The notes beneath the pieces are model-generated. The model did not search any database, had not been told where the DNA came from, and was given only the letters and a program-made list of their open reading frames with translations. From assembly GCF_017873605.1 (NCBI RefSeq), contig NZ_JAGGKI010000001.1, positions 248,001 to 312,000 on the forward strand: a DNA stretch of 64,000 nt. The letters are read 5' to 3'. This stretch comes from Paenibacillus lactis (lineage in GTDB: Bacteria > Bacillota > Bacilli > Paenibacillales > Paenibacillaceae). A program made the translations under genes and the position numbers. Shown here piece after piece: positions 10,731 to 50,241 of the stretch (the first letter of the stretch is position 1; every line of letters starts with the position of its first letter).

Positions 10731-12200
10731 TTATACAGACTCCGGCTTATTTGCTGCCGGAATGAAGCCGCTCAGATCTACGCCGAGTCCCTCGGCCAGT
10801 CTGGCTCCGTATTCGGCATCCGCCCGGTAGAAGTTGCATACGGCCCGCAGTTGGATGTCCTGCTTCACCTGGCTCAGATCGGCAATCAGGTTGCGGAGCA
10901 GATTGTCTTTCTGCTGCTCGGTGAAGGAGCGGTACAGCTCTCCGGCTTGGGTGAAATCGTCCGTCTTCTCGATACGCTGGCGAACGACATGACCGCTAAG
11001 CGGCGCTTCGCTCTCCTGAACGGATGGATCCTCGACCGGTCCGGTCGTATAGCTGTTCGGCTCGTAGTTGACCGGAGACGGATCCTGCTTGACGTTCATC
11101 AGGCCGTCGCGCTGATGGTTGCGCACCGGTGCATACGGACAGTTGATCGGAATTTGCAAGTAGTTGGCGCCCAGCCGGTGACGCTGCGTATCCGGATAGG
11201 AGAACAGACGTCCTTGAAGGAGCTTATCCTCCGACGGCTCAATGCCGGGAACCAGCGCGCTTGGCGAGAAAGCGGCCTGTTCAACTTCCGCGAAGAAATT
11301 TTGCGGATTGCGGTTCAAGGTCATGGTGCCTACCGTAATGAACGGGAAGCGGTCCTCCGGCCATACCTTCGTTGGATCCAGGGGATCAAAAGGCAAATCG
11401 TCCATCTCCTCCGGCGACATCAATTGCACCACCAGACGCCATTTCGGAAAGTCGCCTTGCTCGATATGCTCGCGCAGATCCCGCGTAGCATGGTTGAAAT
11501 CCTTGCCCTGCACTTCAACCAGCTCATCCGCATCCAGGGTTCGTACCCCTTGCTGCGATTCCCACTTATATTTCACATAAGTCACTTTGCCTTCGCTGTT
11601 GACCCATTTGAATGCATGCACGCTGAATCCGTCCAGCTCACGGTAGTTGGCCGGCGTTCCATGATCGGAGAACACCCAGGTCATCATATGCGTGGATTCC
11701 GGGGACAGCGTCATGAAATCCCAATACCGTCCGGGCTCTTGAATGTTGCTGTCCGGAGCCGGCTTCAAGGAATGGACCATATCAGGGAATTTGATGGCAT
11801 CCCGGATAAAGAAGACAGGGATATGATTACCAACGATATCGTAGTTGCCTTCCTCCGTATAGAACTTCACGGCAAAGCCGCGCGGGTCTCGTGCCGTTTC
11901 CGGGGAACCTGTTCCATGAATGACGGTAGAGAATCGAACGAAGACCGGCGTCTCCTGCCCGATCTCCTGCAGGAAGGCCGCTTTGGTGTACGGCTTCATG
12001 TCATTCTCCACGACGAAGATGCCATGCGCCCCGGCTCCGCGGGCGTGAACGACGCGCTCCGGAATCCGTTCACGGTCAAAATGCGCGATCTTTTCAATCA
12101 GATGATAATCCTCCAGCAGCGTAGGACCGCGGCGGCCTGCGGTCTTCGAATTCTGATTGTCTCCTACGGGAGCTCCTTGGTTCGTTGTCAATCTATCCAT
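10731..12200 (-). CDS. katA: vegetative-type monofunctional haem catalase
   Basis: A 489-residue clade-3-size catalase that dismutates hydrogen peroxide in the cytoplasm. Seen: distal His in [38 protein letters not shown], the Asn of NHIPVFFIRDAIKFPD, and the proximal haem-ligand Tyr in RLFSYPDTQRHRLG. The start MDRLTTNQGAP is preceded by GGAGG at a suitable distance; an alternative in-frame ATG five codons upstream is less well placed. A perfect TTTAGA-n5-TCTAAA palindrome lies 32 bases upstream of the start, near the transcription start. A PerR-like repressor gene is the second gene upstream, so peroxide-inducible derepression is likely. Confidence 0.95.
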   Translation of the reverse strand: MDRLTTNQGAPVGDNQNSKTAGRRGPTLLEDYHLIEKIAHFDRERIPERVVHARGAGAHGIFVVENDMKPYTKAAFLQEIGQETPVFVRFSTVIHGTGSPETARDPRGFAVKFYTEEGNYDIVGNHIPVFFIRDAIKFPDMVHSLKPAPDSNIQEPGRYWDFMTLSPESTHMMTWVFSDHGTPANYRELDGFSVHAFKWVNSEGKVTYVKYKWESQQGVRTLDADELVEVQGKDFNHATRDLREHIEQGDFPKWRLVVQLMSPEEMDDLPFDPLDPTKVWPEDRFPFITVGTMTLNRNPQNFFAEVEQAAFSPSALVPGIEPSEDKLLQGRLFSYPDTQRHRLGANYLQIPINCPYAPVRNHQRDGLMNVKQDPSPVNYEPNSYTTGPVEDPSVQESEAPLSGHVVRQRIEKTDDFTQAGELYRSFTEQQKDNLLRNLIADLSQVKQDIQLRAVCNFYRADAEYGARLAEGLGVDLSGFIPAANKPESV

Positions 12201-12231
12201 GCGGAAAACCTCCATCATTTCTATAATTGAT

Positions 12232-12248
12232 TTTAGACTGAATCTAAA
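12232..12248. promoter_or_regulatory. PerR/Fur-type operator in front of katA
   Basis: TTTAGACTGAATCTAAA is a perfect 6-bp inverted repeat with a 5-base spacer. It sits just downstream of a possible -10 element (TACAAT, minus strand, 12265-12260), so a bound repressor would block katA. It resembles PerR boxes in being AT-rich with TTAGA/TCTAA arms, though it departs from the Bacillus consensus. Confidence 0.6.
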
Positions 12249-12397
12249 TCTATGAAATGATTGTATCATCCCGGAATTTGTCCGGTCATGAGTGTCGCAT
12301 GAACCTTCGATGAGCGTTGCGTGATTGACCAATGAGCATTCATGTTCATTCGATGAAGTTCTTATGAATGATCCGTGAGCAGAAAAAAAGGAGGAGG

Positions 12398-13213
12398 TTA
12401 GTCCGCCAAGCGGTAACCTACTCCACGTACCGTCGCGATATAGCGTGGTGCTCCCGCATTATCGCTCAGCTTCTTGCGCAAGCTCTTGATATGCACGTCA
12501 ACTACATTGCTGCCGCCCATAAAATCCGTGTCCCAAATCTTGCTCATCAGCTCCTCGCGGGTGCAGACGGCCCCCTTGCTATCCATTAGCAGCAGAAGCA
12601 GCATGTACTCCGTCTTGGTGAGATGAATCGGAGCTTGCCCGCGATGTACCGTCATTTTATCCCGATCAATGGTCAGATCCTTAAATACGAGACCTTTAGC
12701 TTCCTCATCACCGGCAGGAGCGGAGACGGGGGCGAACAGGCGGATCGTCCGCTGCACTTGGTACATCATCGTATCCTTGGAGCGAGCCGGCCAGACCATC
12801 AGCTCCTCGTTCATCAGACTAGCGCCGGCATTGCTCATAAGCTCCTCGCCAACAAGATAGAGGACCGGGATCGAAGGATGCTCCGGCAGCAGCAGCTCCC
12901 GTTCTTTGCTGAAGGCAGCCATGTCCCTGCAGCCGGTCATGTCCGCAATGATCAATCCGGTGTTCAGAGCCGTCTGGAGACGCGGCTCCCACTTCCGGAA
13001 CATCATCACCTCGAAGCAGTTCTCCGTCAGCGTCATGAACATTTCATGAACCCGTCCAGGTGACCGGCTTAACAGCGCCGCGCGCATCGTCGTAGGACAA
13101 GCATCGCCGATCGCCATACCCGCTCCCGGATGCTGGTACAGGCTGGTCGTCTTCCAGTCCGGAAACGAATATACGGTCGCCATCTCCATTATTTCTTCCG
13201 TTTGGTTTGACAT
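12398..13213 (-). CDS. OmpR-type winged-helix regulator with a pseudo-receiver
   Basis: A 271-residue protein from the chosen start MSNQTEEIMEMA. The C-terminal 95 residues are a clear Trans_reg_C winged helix (LTKTEYMLLLLLMDSKGA, VVDVHIKSLRKKLSDN, IATVRGVGYRLAD). The N-terminal part has receiver-like strand order (GLIIADMTGC, IPVLYLVGEE, ELMVWPARSKD). It lacks the acidic pair, the conserved Thr/Ser and the KP loop, so phosphorylation seems unlikely. No kinase gene is adjacent. The start overlaps the end of the PerR-like gene by 25 bases, indicating co-transcription and translational coupling. Its job may be redox or stress control of katA or itself. The start is moderately secure; a later ATG (MEMATVYSF) is possible. 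Confidence 0.75.
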   Translation of the reverse strand: MSNQTEEIMEMATVYSFPDWKTTSLYQHPGAGMAIGDACPTTMRAALLSRSPGRVHEMFMTLTENCFEVMMFRKWEPRLQTALNTGLIIADMTGCRDMAAFSKERELLLPEHPSIPVLYLVGEELMSNAGASLMNEELMVWPARSKDTMMYQVQRTIRLFAPVSAPAGDEEAKGLVFKDLTIDRDKMTVHRGQAPIHLTKTEYMLLLLLMDSKGAVCTREELMSKIWDTDFMGGSNVVDVHIKSLRKKLSDNAGAPRYIATVRGVGYRLAD

Positions 13214-46319: not shown

Positions 46320-48023
46320 ATGACGATGATCGGTATTGATCTTGGGACGACAAACAGCCTTGCGGCTTATTGGGCCGAGGACCGTGCGGCAATCATCCCG
46401 AATGTGCTCGGGGAGCACCTTACGCCTTCGGTTATAAGCGTTGACGACAACGGGGAGATTTTGGTCGGCCGGGTTGCGCAGGAGCGGCTTATCACGCATC
46501 CGCAATCGACGGCAGCGACGTTCAAGCGGTTTATGGGGACAGAAAAAACCTACGCGCTCGGCCCTCACACCTTCACGCCGGAAGAGCTCTCATCCTTTAT
46601 CATCAAAGCGCTGAAGGCCGATGCCGAAGCTTATTTGGGCGAGACGGTGACGGAAGCCGTCATCAGCGTTCCCGCCTACTTCAACGATACCCAGCGCAAG
46701 GCAACGAAGACGGCCGCGGAATTGGCCGGTCTCAAGGTGGAGCGGCTCATCAGCGAGCCGACGGCTGCGGCGGTTGCCTATGGATTGCACCAGGAGAGCC
46801 CCGAAACGAAATTTCTCGTATTCGACCTGGGCGGCGGCACATTCGATGTATCCATACTGGAATTGTTCGAAGGCATCATGGATGTGAAATCCATTGCCGG
46901 CGATAACTTTCTGGGGGGCGAGGATTTTACGGAGCTCCTCTTTACGCACTTTTTACATACGCATGACTTGAATGCCGAAGATCTCAGTGCCAAAACGAGA
47001 TCGCTGATCTATAAGCAGGCCGAAATGTGCAAGCTGGCCCTCGGCCAGGATAACGAAGCCAAGATGACCGTCCCTGCCGAGACCGGCAGCTTGGAGCTGC
47101 GCATAAGCCGGACGGAATTTGAAAAGCTTGCCCAGCCGCTTCTGCTCCGTCTGCGCCAGCCGATCGAGCGTGCGCTGCGGGACGCTTCCCTTACACCTTC
47201 CGAATTGGACGCCATTATTCTCATCGGCGGAGCTACGCGCATGCCGCTGATTCGCAGCGTCATTGGCAGGATGTTCGGCCGGATGCCTTACAGCAACATC
47301 CATCCCGATGAGACGGTTGCGATCGGTGCGGCGATCCAAACGGCGCTGAAGCAGCGCAACCAAGCGCTCGAAGAGATGATTTTAACGGATGTGTGCCCGT
47401 ATACCCTCGGTACCAGCGTTGTGCGGGAGATGGGAGGCGGCCAATATTCAACAGGGCATTTCCTCCCGATTATCGAACGGAACACGCCGATACCGGTCAG
47501 CCGGGTCGAGCGCCTCTACACGATTTCCGATAATCAGCGGCAAATGACCGTCGATGTGTATCAAGGGGAGAGCCGGCGCGTGGAGAACAACATTAAGCTC
47601 GGTGAGCTCCGGATCAAAATTCCGCCGGCCCCGGCGGGGGAGCAGAGCATTGACGTGCGCTATACGTATGATATCAACGGCATTTTGGAGGTCGAGGTCA
47701 TCAGCGTGGCAACCGGCGAGAAAAAAAGAGCGGTCATCGAAAGCAACGTCGGCTCCATGACCAAGGAGCAGATCGAGGCCCGGCTTGCCGAGCTGAAGGA
47801 TATCAAGATCCATCCCCGGGATCGTACCGAGAACAGGCTGCTGATCGCAAGAGGCGAGCGGCTGTACGAGGAATCGCTGGGCGACCGCCGAGAGATGATT
47901 GCCCGGCTGATTCAGCAGTTCGAGATGCAGCTGCAGACGCAAAATGAGCAAGTGGTTAAACAGGCTGCCGAAGCGCTCAAGGAGCAGCTGGATCAGCTCG
48001 AAAGGTGGATGGATTTGACATGA
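46320..48023 (+). CDS. hscC: HscC-type Hsp70 chaperone
   Basis: A 567-residue Hsp70 with the short HscC architecture. The ATPase domain has phosphate-1 GIDLGTTNSLAAYW, connector and phosphate-2 FLVFDLGGGTFDVSIL, adenosine motif ILIGGATRMPLI and hydrolysis-related SVPAYFNDTQRKATK. The substrate domain is near-complete (LGTSVVREMGGGQYSTGHFLPIIERNTPIP as parts), while the helical lid is short (about 60 residues) and lacks the EEVD-like end. At 567 residues it is clearly smaller than DnaK (about 610-640). It is the first gene of a three-gene operon with a J-domain protein and a DUF1266 protein. The start is an ATG, with a weak upstream AGAGGGG at 14 bases. Confidence 0.9.
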   Translation: MTMIGIDLGTTNSLAAYWAEDRAAIIPNVLGEHLTPSVISVDDNGEILVGRVAQERLITHPQSTAATFKRFMGTEKTYALGPHTFTPEELSSFIIKALKADAEAYLGETVTEAVISVPAYFNDTQRKATKTAAELAGLKVERLISEPTAAAVAYGLHQESPETKFLVFDLGGGTFDVSILELFEGIMDVKSIAGDNFLGGEDFTELLFTHFLHTHDLNAEDLSAKTRSLIYKQAEMCKLALGQDNEAKMTVPAETGSLELRISRTEFEKLAQPLLLRLRQPIERALRDASLTPSELDAIILIGGATRMPLIRSVIGRMFGRMPYSNIHPDETVAIGAAIQTALKQRNQALEEMILTDVCPYTLGTSVVREMGGGQYSTGHFLPIIERNTPIPVSRVERLYTISDNQRQMTVDVYQGESRRVENNIKLGELRIKIPPAPAGEQSIDVRYTYDINGILEVEVISVATGEKKRAVIESNVGSMTKEQIEARLAELKDIKIHPRDRTENRLLIARGERLYEESLGDRREMIARLIQQFEMQLQTQNEQVVKQAAEALKEQLDQLERWMDLT

Positions 48024-49405
48024 GTGTATGGGACATTTTGGGGATCGAAGCAACCGGAGATACATCAGCCATCAAAAGAGCCTATGCGAAAAAGCTGAGA
48101 CTCCACCACCCGGAGGATGACCCTGAGGGCTATCAGCGCCTTCGCGAGGCTTATGATTCCGCGCTTACGATGGCGCCTTACGTTGAGCCGGAGAAGGATG
48201 AGCGCCTGGATTTCGATGAGCCATCCGCTTACGATCGCGGCCAGACGGCGTTCTCTGGCGGCGAGCTTTGGACGGGTGAAGAAAAAGACGATTACCCCGC
48301 ATCCGGACAATCTCCGGCTGCTTCCGATTATTACAGAGAACCGCTTCACCACGCCCGCGAGCCGATTCCGCAAGACCCGATTGAGCAGTTCATCGATGAG
48401 ATCGACGAAATTTATGAGAATTTCCAGGCGCGCATCGATCCCGAGGCCTGGGAGGACGCGCTTAACCGGGACATCGTATGGGATGTCGAGCGGAGCGGGG
48501 AACTGCAGTACGAACTGATGGACTTTCTGGAGGATCATCGCCATCTCCCCCGCCCGGTATGGCAGCGGCTTGACGACATGCTCCACTTCACGGAGAACAA
48601 GGAAGACCTGCTGGGGGAATACCCCGATTCGCTCATCGAATATATCATGAGCCAAATTAACGGTACCTCCGAGCTGCGGTACGAGTGCTTTAAGGAGCAT
48701 CCTGCTAAGGATATCGATATCGAGCAGTATCTCGATCTGAGGGAACAGGGACAGTACATGTTGAAGGAAGGCGAGCTGGAAGAAGCCCTCGACGATTTGA
48801 CCCGCGCCAACGAGATATATCCTCATGATCCCGACCTTCAGCTTATGCTCGGTAAATGCCATGCGCGGACCGGCAACCTGACCGCCGCGGACGAATGCTT
48901 CGGTCAAGCCATCCGGCTGGCGCCGGAGGAGCTTGATGGATATTGGCACCGTGCCCAGATCCGGTTCGAGCAGGCGGATTACTCGTCCGCATTGAGCGAC
49001 CTTGAGAAGGTGCTGGGCCAAGAGCCGGAAAATACCGATGCGCTCTGCCTGAAAGGACGATGTTATATAGGACTTGAGGAGATAGATCAGGCACGGGATA
49101 TCTTGAAACAGTCCAATCAGCTCGAGAATCCCCATATTCACTCGTATATCTACCTGTGCATGGCGTCCAACAAGCATAAATACGGCCGGAGACACATCAC
49201 AGCCGCTGACCGGTGGCGGTCATGGAGAAGCAATCTGTTATTCGATACGCTCATGGTGCTCCGCTTAAGCTGGCTCTACATTCTGGTTTATCTGGCTCTG
49301 CAAATATTCTTCGACCTGCACCCGGTATATACGTGGCTATTGATTGCCGTCATCCTGTGGAACACCTGGAAGGCCATCAAAGTGCATTGGGTGCTTGCAA
49401 CCTAG
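48020..49405 (+). CDS. J-domain/TPR membrane co-chaperone, DjlB/DjlC-like
   Basis: A 461-residue protein starting MSVWDILGIEATGDTSAIKR; its ATG overlaps the hscC stop (ATGA). The J-like domain (1-50) ends with H30-P31-E32 instead of the canonical HPD (LRLHHPEDDPEGYQRLREAY). An acidic linker follows. The centre (about 235-365) carries three TPR-like repeats (YMLKEGELEEALDDLTRANE, CHARTGNLTAADECFGQAI, RFEQADYSSALSDLEKVLG). Two membrane segments close the protein (about 410-455, LSWLYILVYLALQIFF and VYTWLLIAVILWN). It is the probable HscC partner, tethered to the membrane by its C terminus with the J-domain facing the cytoplasm. The family match to E. coli DjlB/DjlC is inferred from the J-domain sequence style and gene order. 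Confidence 0.8.
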   Translation: MSVWDILGIEATGDTSAIKRAYAKKLRLHHPEDDPEGYQRLREAYDSALTMAPYVEPEKDERLDFDEPSAYDRGQTAFSGGELWTGEEKDDYPASGQSPAASDYYREPLHHAREPIPQDPIEQFIDEIDEIYENFQARIDPEAWEDALNRDIVWDVERSGELQYELMDFLEDHRHLPRPVWQRLDDMLHFTENKEDLLGEYPDSLIEYIMSQINGTSELRYECFKEHPAKDIDIEQYLDLREQGQYMLKEGELEEALDDLTRANEIYPHDPDLQLMLGKCHARTGNLTAADECFGQAIRLAPEELDGYWHRAQIRFEQADYSSALSDLEKVLGQEPENTDALCLKGRCYIGLEEIDQARDILKQSNQLENPHIHSYIYLCMASNKHKYGRRHITAADRWRSWRSNLLFDTLMVLRLSWLYILVYLALQIFFDLHPVYTWLLIAVILWNTWKAIKVHWVLAT

Positions 49406-49423
49406 AAAGGAGGCATTCGCATC

Positions 49424-50128
49424 ATGGAAGGATTCAGCCGCAAGCACAAGAAAAGAATCGAGCTCTACCTCCGCTGCTTGTCCAGCGTTTGTATCGATAG
49501 CATGCTGGGCTATTATTATATTCCTTATGAATTTCATCCCTCGGAGCGCTGGCTGCGAAAAGGCGTGATGAAAAAAGCGCTGGCCGACTGGAAGATCACG
49601 GACGCGGCCTCCCTCAAGGAGCGTATCGATTTTTTGCTAAACGACGGCCACTGCCAGGAATACCTGGACATTCATAACCGTTTGTCCGCCCTAACCCTCA
49701 AGGCACGCGAGCGTTATCTCGAGGACGCCAAAGACGATCCCGATTACAAAAAAATGATCGTTGTCGGCAAATGGATGGGGATGCTGCCTTCGGCCGATAT
49801 CGCCGCATTAGGCGGGGGCTGGGCCATCCTTCTTAGCCGGATCGGACGGATCTATCGCTTCCTGAGCGAAGAGGAGGCCTGGGAGATCAAACAAAAGGCA
49901 GCGGCCCTCCTACAGCAGCATTACCGCAGCTGGGACGAATATCTTACCGCCTTTGCGGCCGGCACGCATTTTATCAAAGAGGATATCGCAATGAAGTACT
50001 CCCACCATGTTATAAGCAGAGCCAGCAACATCCTCGGGGGCAGCAAGCTTGCCTACAATAAGGTGCCTTGGGATCTAAGCCTGCTACCGGACAAGCACGC
50101 TTCGGCCAGCATGTCGGCCTCAGTCTGA
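49424..50128 (+). CDS. DUF1266-domain protein, third gene of the HscC operon
   Basis: A 234-residue soluble protein; AGGAGG lies just upstream. It shows the DUF1266 pattern: a W in KKALADWKITDAASLKERIDFLL, the conserved G-H (LNDGHCQEYLD), a central helix pair, and LLQQHYRSWDEYLTAFAAG near the end. The function of DUF1266 is unknown. In E. coli, DUF1266 proteins YbeR and YbeU lie beside djlB, djlC and hscC. The occurrence here directly behind an hscC and J-protein pair suggests it is a client, adaptor or scaffold of that chaperone system. A terminator ends the operon. Confidence 0.75.
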   Translation: MEGFSRKHKKRIELYLRCLSSVCIDSMLGYYYIPYEFHPSERWLRKGVMKKALADWKITDAASLKERIDFLLNDGHCQEYLDIHNRLSALTLKARERYLEDAKDDPDYKKMIVVGKWMGMLPSADIAALGGGWAILLSRIGRIYRFLSEEEAWEIKQKAAALLQQHYRSWDEYLTAFAAGTHFIKEDIAMKYSHHVISRASNILGGSKLAYNKVPWDLSLLPDKHASASMSASV

Positions 50129-50197: not shown

Positions 50198-50241
50198 CAA
50201 AAGCCAGGACAGACCGAATAAAGGCTCTGCCTGGCTTTTTC
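50198..50241. terminator. bidirectional terminator between the HscC operon and the next gene
   Basis: AAAAGCCAGG and CCTGGCTTTT pair with an inner stem-loop; A-run and T-run flank it on both sides. It therefore serves the plus-strand hscC operon and the convergent minus-strand gene. Confidence 0.8.

What the first reader, a model, noticed from the sequence alone, without database searches (positions are those of the whole stretch)
46320..50128. HscC - J-protein - DUF1266 operon mirroring the E. coli ybe/hscC cluster
Seen: a short Hsp70 (hscC), a J-domain/TPR membrane protein overlapping it by ATGA, and a DUF1266 protein directly behind, closed by a terminator. Known: in E. coli hscC (ybeW) lies near djlC, djlB and two DUF1266 genes (ybeR, ybeU). 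The same trio in a Firmicute, in different order and compactly coupled, suggests that DUF1266 is an integral third component of a specialised chaperone machine and not a chance neighbour. Function and client remain undescribed.
Basis: partly seen in the sequence, partly recalled or inferred. Interest (0 to 1): 0.75.

Follow-up and report, generated by a model that had tools for sequence, protein, structure and literature searches.

The report
Third subunit of HscC chaperone
This bacterial genome carries a compact gene set for a specialised Hsp70 chaperone (HscC), its J-protein helper and a protein of unknown function (DUF1266); in the related bacteria surveyed, almost every helper gene found of this type has a DUF1266 gene right behind it or fused to it, so DUF1266 is likely a dedicated third part that would steer or control this chaperone.

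Summary
hscC (46320-48023), a J-domain/TPR gene overlapping it by ATGA (48020-49405) and a DUF1266 gene 18 bp behind (49424-50128) lie in one orientation before a strong terminator-like hairpin (50199-50239).

The idea that DUF1266 is no chance neighbour is strongly supported, with a changed centre: DUF1266 is tied to the J gene more than to hscC. In 149 genomes of the window's order, 48 of 50 J genes of this type have DUF1266 as next gene, also where hscC is far away; outside that order 22 of 23 do, two as fused polypeptides. All 27 hscC-bearing genomes have the J gene (2 of 122 others); 26 of 27 have DUF1266 (4 of 122 others). J and DUF1266 diverge as matched pairs (r = 0.92). E. coli has the mirror order (DUF1266-J, twice, 4-bp overlaps) beside one hscC.

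Limits: DUF1266 is not next to HscC-J in the Lachnospiraceae, Alpha- and Betaproteobacteria, Pseudomonas, Rahnella and Pantoea loci read, and it also occurs in other settings (secreted-looking proteins, an immunity-gene array). Most likely it is a cognate subunit of the J co-chaperone, giving one HscC motor several exchangeable heads; that role is inferred.

The parts
46320..48023 (+). hscC: HscC-type Hsp70, 567 aa
   Evidence: PF00012 468.6 bits; GrpE-signature deletion, L1,2 insertion, lid deletion; 46.8% identity to E. coli HscC against 34.0% to E. coli DnaK and 37.5% to the genome's own DnaK
48020..49405 (+). J-domain/TPR protein with HPE motif and hydrophobic C-terminus (DjlB/DjlC-like co-chaperone), 461 aa; ATGA overlap with hscC
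49406..49423 (+). 18-bp spacer between J gene and DUF1266 with AAAGGAGG ribosome-binding-like stretch (49406-49413)
   Evidence: sequence
49424..50128 (+). DUF1266 protein, 234 aa, all-helical model; likely cognate partner of the J protein
   Evidence: PF06889 93.0 bits; AF2 pLDDT 80.7, pTM 0.80; linkage
50199..50239 (+). intrinsic-terminator-like hairpin with T run, likely end of the operon
   Evidence: -23.3 kcal/mol, z -6.48, 0 of 200 shuffles as stable

Best explanation
The three genes encode an HscC-type Hsp70, a DjlB/DjlC-type J-protein and a DUF1266 protein that is likely a cognate subunit of that J-protein, and together they are predicted to work as one specialised chaperone machine. 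The predicted cycle: the J-protein, which in this genome is probably anchored in the membrane by its C-terminus, would recruit HscC through its HPE J-domain and trigger ATP hydrolysis. DUF1266 would bind the J-protein (its TPR or C-terminal part) and act as the client-recognising or targeting head. One HscC motor could then serve several exchangeable J-DUF1266 heads. Shown here: gene order, domain content, co-occurrence, fusion, matched divergence of J and DUF1266, and more J genes than HscC genes in 11 of 27 plus 6 of 15 genomes. Known from E. coli through a review, not tested here: DjlC stimulates HscC and DjlB/C are tail-anchored. Inferred: physical binding of DUF1266 to J, and its adaptor role.
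For: (1) J-side linkage: 48 of 50 J genes found in 149 genomes of the order have DUF1266 as next downstream gene, though only 27 of the 50 lie within 400 bp of hscC; outside the order 22 of 23 in 299 genomes of the class, paired by reading coordinates. (2) Fusion: J-TPR-DUF1266 in one polypeptide beside hscC (L052/L117); P0035, P0037, P0040; G613, one 797-aa frame holding both. (3) Co-occurrence: DUF1266 in 26 of 27 hscC genomes and 4 of 122 others, Fisher 9e-24; within-genus shuffling gave mean 8.9, maximum 19, 0 of 200,000 reaching 26. J gene in 27 of 27 and 2 of 122. Outside the order 15 of 16 J-bearing genomes have HscC, and 0 of 6 genomes with only J-less DUF1266 do, two of the six having only a fragment or a stop-ridden copy. 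(4) Split operons: G029, G035 and G139 have a solo hscC and a J-DUF1266 pair elsewhere. (5) Matched pairs: J (first 340 residues) and DUF1266 distances correlate at 0.92 over 44 pairs (0.78 with the J-domain alone); exchanging partners within a genome gives mean 0.48, maximum 0.85, 0 of 2000 as high. (6) One motor, several heads: up to 4 J genes, 3 of them with DUF1266, beside 1 hscC; 11 of 27 hscC genomes in the order and 6 of 15 outside have more J genes than hscC genes (read); E. coli likewise, two pairs and one hscC. (7) Second phylum: DUF1266-J with 4-bp overlaps in E. coli and Erwinia persicina. (8) No other Pfam family recurs beside the operon: best 4 of 110 neighbours scanned.
Against: HscC-J without an adjacent DUF1266 is common elsewhere, so HscC-J can work without it; in the phylum sample outside the own order DUF1266 is found in only 2 of 5 HscC genomes, and 6 of 8 DUF1266 genomes there have no HscC found. 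Two genomes of the order (G072, G083) and G616 have J-DUF1266 but no HscC found. 11 of 59 DUF1266 genes in the order and 7 of 29 outside it have no such J gene, and DUF1266 occurs in secreted-looking proteins (L051, L053, L054) and in an immunity-gene array of a Bacteroides plasmid. No interface could be tested: the fusion model has low confidence in its DUF1266 part (pTM 0.52). Matched divergence and linkage show inheritance as a unit, not binding. 19 of 44 J proteins beside DUF1266 have no predicted membrane segment. G455 has the whole trio, but its J-domain lacks the HPE motif.
Confidence: 0.55

Rival explanations
1. DUF1266 is a dedicated regulator of the J-domain: it would bind the HPE J-domain and block or gate its access to HscC, as CbpM does to CbpA in E. 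coli.
For: CbpM is encoded directly downstream of cbpA and blocks its J-domain (passage of PMC8215388 seen); the DUF1266 gene has the same position behind its J gene in the Bacilli sampled, and the pairs diverge together.
Against: In E. coli and Erwinia the DUF1266 gene comes first, and in Bacillus it is fused to the far end of the J protein. The Pfam and NCBIfam scans name no CbpM family, though CbpM itself was not scanned. A regulator alone does not readily explain why whole J-DUF1266 pairs multiply.
Confidence: 0.25
2. DUF1266 is the nucleotide exchange factor that HscC otherwise lacks: HscC has lost the GrpE signature, and DUF1266 would open its nucleotide cleft.
For: The GrpE-signature segment is missing in this HscC but kept in the genome's own DnaK; DUF1266 tracks HscC across genomes.
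Against: DUF1266 pairs with J rather than with HscC, occurs in up to three J-linked, diverged copies per single HscC, and is missing beside many HscCs. The review argues that HscC may need no exchange factor (PMC8215388 section 12 part 2).
Confidence: 0.08
3. DUF1266 is a general protein-binding or immunity-like domain, picked up by J loci as a passenger with an unrelated role.
For: Two DUF1266 genes lie in an Imm5/PoNe/ankyrin array on a Bacteroides plasmid; secreted-looking DUF1266 proteins exist; J-less DUF1266 branches exist.
Against: 48 of 50 and 22 of 23 J genes found carry it, J first in each case, with matched divergence and fusions. J-linked copies are spread over much of the DUF1266 tree. 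No PADLOC match for the three window proteins and no PHROG match for three DUF1266 proteins.
Confidence: 0.1
4. Chance neighbourhood or shared inheritance only.
For: Linked genes are inherited together, and some lineages lack DUF1266.
Against: Within-genus shuffling: 0 of 200,000 reach the observed co-occurrence; far-off J-DUF1266 pairs and split operons; opposite order in a second phylum.
Confidence: 0.02

Closest known systems
E. coli HscC-DjlB/DjlC system (ybe cluster)
   Same: HscC-type Hsp70, HPE J-proteins with hydrophobic C-terminus, DUF1266 genes touching the J genes, at least as many J-DUF1266 pairs as HscC genes
   Different: In the window the order is hscC-J-DUF1266 in one operon with one pair; the J protein has TPR repeats, which the Pfam scan does not find in DjlB/DjlC; the two flanking genes show no Sel1 match
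J-TPR-DUF1266 fusion proteins of Bacillus (P0035, P0037, P0040; L117)
   Same: Same domains in the same order as the window's two genes, beside hscC in L117
   Different: One polypeptide instead of two genes; DUF1266 part of P0035 32% identical over 219 residues to P0001, the window protein's database cluster
CbpA-CbpM of E. coli (J-protein with regulator encoded behind it)
   Same: Small partner protein encoded directly behind a J-protein gene (PMC8215388)
   Different: CbpM works on a DnaK co-chaperone; no profile match links it to DUF1266
HscA-HscB system for iron-sulfur clusters
   Same: Specialised Hsp70 with its own J-protein, GrpE signature lost
   Different: 34.2% identity between E. 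coli HscA and the window protein; the two genes flanking the window's operon match no iron-sulfur family

Membership tests
HscC subfamily of Hsp70 | Length 550-580 residues (stated in PMC8215388) | tested here: met
   567 aa
HscC subfamily of Hsp70 | GrpE-signature segment deleted | tested here: met
   Deleted as in E. coli HscC, kept in E. coli DnaK and in the genome's own DnaK
HscC subfamily of Hsp70 | Insertion of 4-8 residues in loop L1,2 and shortened lid helix B | tested here: met
   About 9 extra residues in L1,2, slightly more than the stated 4-8, and a lid deletion aligned with that of E. coli HscC
HscC subfamily of Hsp70 | Deletion in nucleotide-binding lobe I (DnaK 76-101) | tested here: met
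   Met, but the genome's own DnaK has it too, so it does not discriminate
HscC subfamily of Hsp70 | ATPase stimulated by its own J-protein and not by DnaJ | not testable with these tools
   Needs biochemistry
DjlB/DjlC-type J-proteins | N-terminal J-domain with HPE in place of HPD | tested here: met
   HPE present; 23.7 bits to PF00226, under its 27.8 cut-off, as are DjlB (21.1) and DjlC (19.3); HPE as variant of DjlB/C from PMC13254874 (passage)
DjlB/DjlC-type J-proteins | C-terminal membrane anchor | tested here: met
   Hydrophobic segment from residue 411 of 461; by hydropathy only
DjlB/DjlC-type J-proteins | Gene beside hscC | tested here: met
   ATGA overlap
DUF1266 (PF06889) | Profile score above the curated cut-off | tested here: met
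   93.0 bits against 27
CbpM | Match to a CbpM-type profile | tested here: inconclusive
   Pfam and NCBIfam scans name no such family at E up to 1, but CbpM itself was not scanned, so under what name it would appear is not known from a call
GrpE nucleotide exchange factor | Match to a GrpE profile | tested here: not met
   Pfam and NCBIfam scans list no such family at E up to 1

The most novel reading that the evidence does not exclude
DUF1266 defines a class of Hsp70 co-chaperone subunits: J-DUF1266 pairs are interchangeable client-selecting heads for a single HscC motor, a modular chaperone system found in two phyla and, in Bacillus, welded into one polypeptide.
Probability: 0.4. Interest if true: 0.78.

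Novelty: new variant of a known kind. Interest (0 to 1): 0.62.

Why it matters
HscC is one of the three E. coli Hsp70s; the review read here gives it no identified client, and Pfam still lists DUF1266 as of unknown function. The linkage found here would give DUF1266 a first functional address (partner of DjlB/C-type J-proteins). It makes a clean test possible in E. coli K-12: do the DUF1266 genes ybeR and ybeU act in the hscC-djlB-djlC pathway? If so, bacteria would have an Hsp70 whose specificity is set by pairs of J-protein and adaptor.

Tried and rejected

Counts from genome searches are lower bounds: the tool scored only part of its first-look candidates in many genomes, above all and partly in 30, 36, 100 and 106.
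Full report
What is there. The window holds a compact set of three genes in one orientation. hscC (46320-48023) encodes a 567-aa Hsp70 (PF00012, 468.6 bits). Its stop overlaps the start of a 461-aa protein as ATGA (48020). That protein has an N-terminal J-domain (PF00226, E 5.1e-5, 23.7 bits, below the 27.8-bit cut-off; DjlB and DjlC of E. coli score 21.1 and 19.3, also below it), several TPR repeats and a hydrophobic C-terminus. Eighteen bases behind it, after an AAAGGAGG stretch, begins a 234-aa DUF1266 protein (PF06889, 93.0 bits, cut-off 27). A strong hairpin with a T run (50199-50239, -23.3 kcal/mol, z -6.5) follows. In the genome (6.74 Mb, 47 contigs) one DUF1266 and two full-length Hsp70s were found. 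Among the 13 named loci the best HscC relatives are in Paenibacillus lautus (86%) and Brevibacillus panacihumi (79%), so the host is likely a Paenibacillus.

It is an HscC. Aligned with E. coli DnaK, HscA and HscC and with the genome's own DnaK, the protein lacks the GrpE signature, has the insertion in loop L1,2 (about 9 residues) and the shortened lid. It is 46.8% identical to E. coli HscC, 34.0% to E. coli DnaK and 37.5% to its own DnaK. The lobe-I deletion is present as well, but also in the genome's own DnaK, so it does not discriminate. These features are those listed for HscC in a review (PMC8215388; passages, section 12 part 2). The J-protein carries HPE instead of HPD, the variant that another review names for DjlB and DjlC (PMC13254874, passage).

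Co-occurrence. In 149 genomes of the window's order, HscC (over 700 bits) is cleanly separated from DnaK (under 390 bits). HscC is found in 27 genomes (30 genes) and DUF1266 in 30 genomes (59 genes). 26 of the 27 HscC genomes have DUF1266, against 4 of the 122 others, and 26 of the 30 hscC genes have a DUF1266 gene within 6 kb. Both are patchy within genera and come and go together: shuffling DUF1266 within each genus gave a mean of 8.9 and a maximum of 19 shared genomes, and 0 of 200,000 shuffles reached 26.

The tie is to the J gene. A J-domain profile (alignment A5) finds 50 genes in 29 of the 149 genomes. The weakest has E 4.5e-25, with nothing further down to the 1e-10 limit, so they form a distinct set. 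All 27 HscC genomes have one; of the others only G072 and G083 do. 48 of the 50 have DUF1266 as the next gene downstream, though only 27 lie within 400 bp of hscC. Sixteen J-DUF1266 pairs lie in loci without hscC. In G029, G035 and G139 hscC stands alone and the J-DUF1266 pair sits elsewhere in the genome. In 299 genomes of the class I paired the coordinates by eye: outside the order there are 23 J genes in 16 genomes, 22 of them with DUF1266 directly behind or fused. 15 of those 16 genomes have HscC, while none of the 6 genomes with only J-less DUF1266 has it found (HscC was not searched in the rest of that sample, and two of the six hold only a fragment or a stop-ridden copy). These counts are lower bounds, because the tool scored only part of its first-look candidates in many genomes.

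Fusions and matched pairs. In Bacillus sp. REN10 (P0035) and two relatives (P0037, P0040) the J/TPR part and DUF1266 form one polypeptide; in locus L117 such a 672-aa protein lies directly behind hscC. G613 has a 797-aa frame holding both. J (first 340 residues) and DUF1266 distances over 44 pairs correlate at 0.92, with the J-domain alone at 0.78; exchanging partners between paralogous pairs of the same genome lowers 0.92 to 0.48 on average (maximum 0.85, 0 of 2000; 11 genomes with more than one pair inform this). J genes per HscC genome in the order: 1 in 13, 2 in 8, 3 in 5, 4 in 1; 48 J for 30 HscC. Eleven of these 27 genomes, and 6 of 15 outside the order, have more J genes than HscC genes (read). 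J-linked DUF1266 proteins are spread over much of the unrooted DUF1266 tree, so the link is old or often renewed.

A second phylum, mirrored. E. coli K-12 has ybeR-djlB and ybeU-djlC, DUF1266 first, each pair overlapping by 4 bp, and one hscC beside them. Erwinia persicina has one such pair next to hscC. In plasmid records (some of the E. coli ones are chromosome-sized), 11 of the 12 with a YbeU-like DUF1266 are also among the 35 with an HscC. But of 10 HscC regions read, 10 have a J gene and only 1 (Erwinia) an adjacent DUF1266. Of the 13 loci, 6 have DUF1266, 6 do not (among them Lachnospiraceae L014-L017) and 1 is cut. So HscC-J is the core, and DUF1266 is a third element of some lineages. 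In the phylum sample of 348 genomes, HscC is found in 9, DUF1266 in 12 and both in 6; outside the own order both occur in only 2 of 5 HscC genomes.

What DUF1266 may do. The model of the window's protein is all-helical (pLDDT 80.7, pTM 0.80). In an alignment of 18 representatives (13 J-linked) no set of polar residues is invariant among the J-linked ones, which speaks for a binding rather than an enzymatic role (inference). The fusion model shows two helices (367-405 and 417-442) between TPR and DUF1266, which would fit a membrane hairpin leaving DUF1266 in the cytosol, but this part is of moderate to low confidence. I read DUF1266 as a cognate subunit of the J-protein. Multiplication of whole pairs around one HscC favours a client- or site-selecting head over a mere inhibitor or an exchange factor, without proving it. 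The membrane location of the J-protein is plausible here but not general: 19 of 44 J proteins show no predicted membrane segment.

Contrary facts. DUF1266 also exists without this J gene: 11 of 59 genes in the order and 7 of 29 outside it, secreted-looking proteins, and two copies in an immunity-gene array on a Bacteroides plasmid. Three genomes have J-DUF1266 but no HscC found (G072, G083, G616). G082, and one of the four J genes of G095, have the J gene without DUF1266 behind it, as does G754. G455 has the trio but no HPE motif.

Novelty. HscC with DjlB/C is known. I found no paper in the searched library that links DUF1266 to it functionally (listings and passages only); one paper notes ybe genes as a cassette (PMC6935094, passage), and the main survey of bacterial J-proteins is not held. 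I file the finding as a new variant of a known kind with a clear, testable prediction.

Noticed in passing
L098:9595-11817 (+) and 11841-12527 (+): Directly behind an hscC-J-DUF1266-J-DUF1266 run in one genus lies a heavy-metal P-type ATPase (HMA + E1-E2_ATPase) and a DsbD_2 protein; in E. coli loss of hscC gives cadmium sensitivity (review), so this may hint at clients.
   Followed up: partly
L068:1-8701: On a Pseudomonas oryzihabitans plasmid hscC lies behind a copper-resistance cluster (multicopper oxidase, copB, copC, copD, metal two-component system).
   Followed up: no
L145:5518-7333: Two DUF1266 genes in tandem within an Imm5/PoNe-immunity/ankyrin gene array on a Bacteroides finegoldii plasmid: another setting for this domain.
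   Followed up: partly
L051, L053, L054: DUF1266 domains in longer proteins with signal-peptide-like starts; no J hit in the enlarged loci L123-L125.
   Followed up: no
L068-L075 J genes: J-proteins beside the proteobacterial HscC genes without DUF1266 show RPD or RPE, or no such motif, in place of HPE.
   Followed up: partly
L071 and L076: Rahnella has two tandem J genes behind hscC, a duplication without DUF1266.
   Followed up: no
L144:4678-7337: In Erwinia persicina strain Cp2 the stretch behind DUF1266 is annotated as several short ORFs (one named J domain), so the J gene looks broken; strain B64 (L067) has one 887-aa J gene there.
   Followed up: no
L119:6769-8046: An hscC-J-DUF1266 run with overlapping genes whose J-domain lacks the HPD/HPE motif.
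   Followed up: no
window:44441-46033: 530-aa protein upstream of hscC without a Pfam match; weak similarity to PTS IIC models of NCBIfam.
   Followed up: no
P0011-P0130: The listed J relatives carry the precomputed Pfam label PF27158, which the Pfam copy used did not report; likely a newer family for the part behind the J-domain.
   Followed up: no
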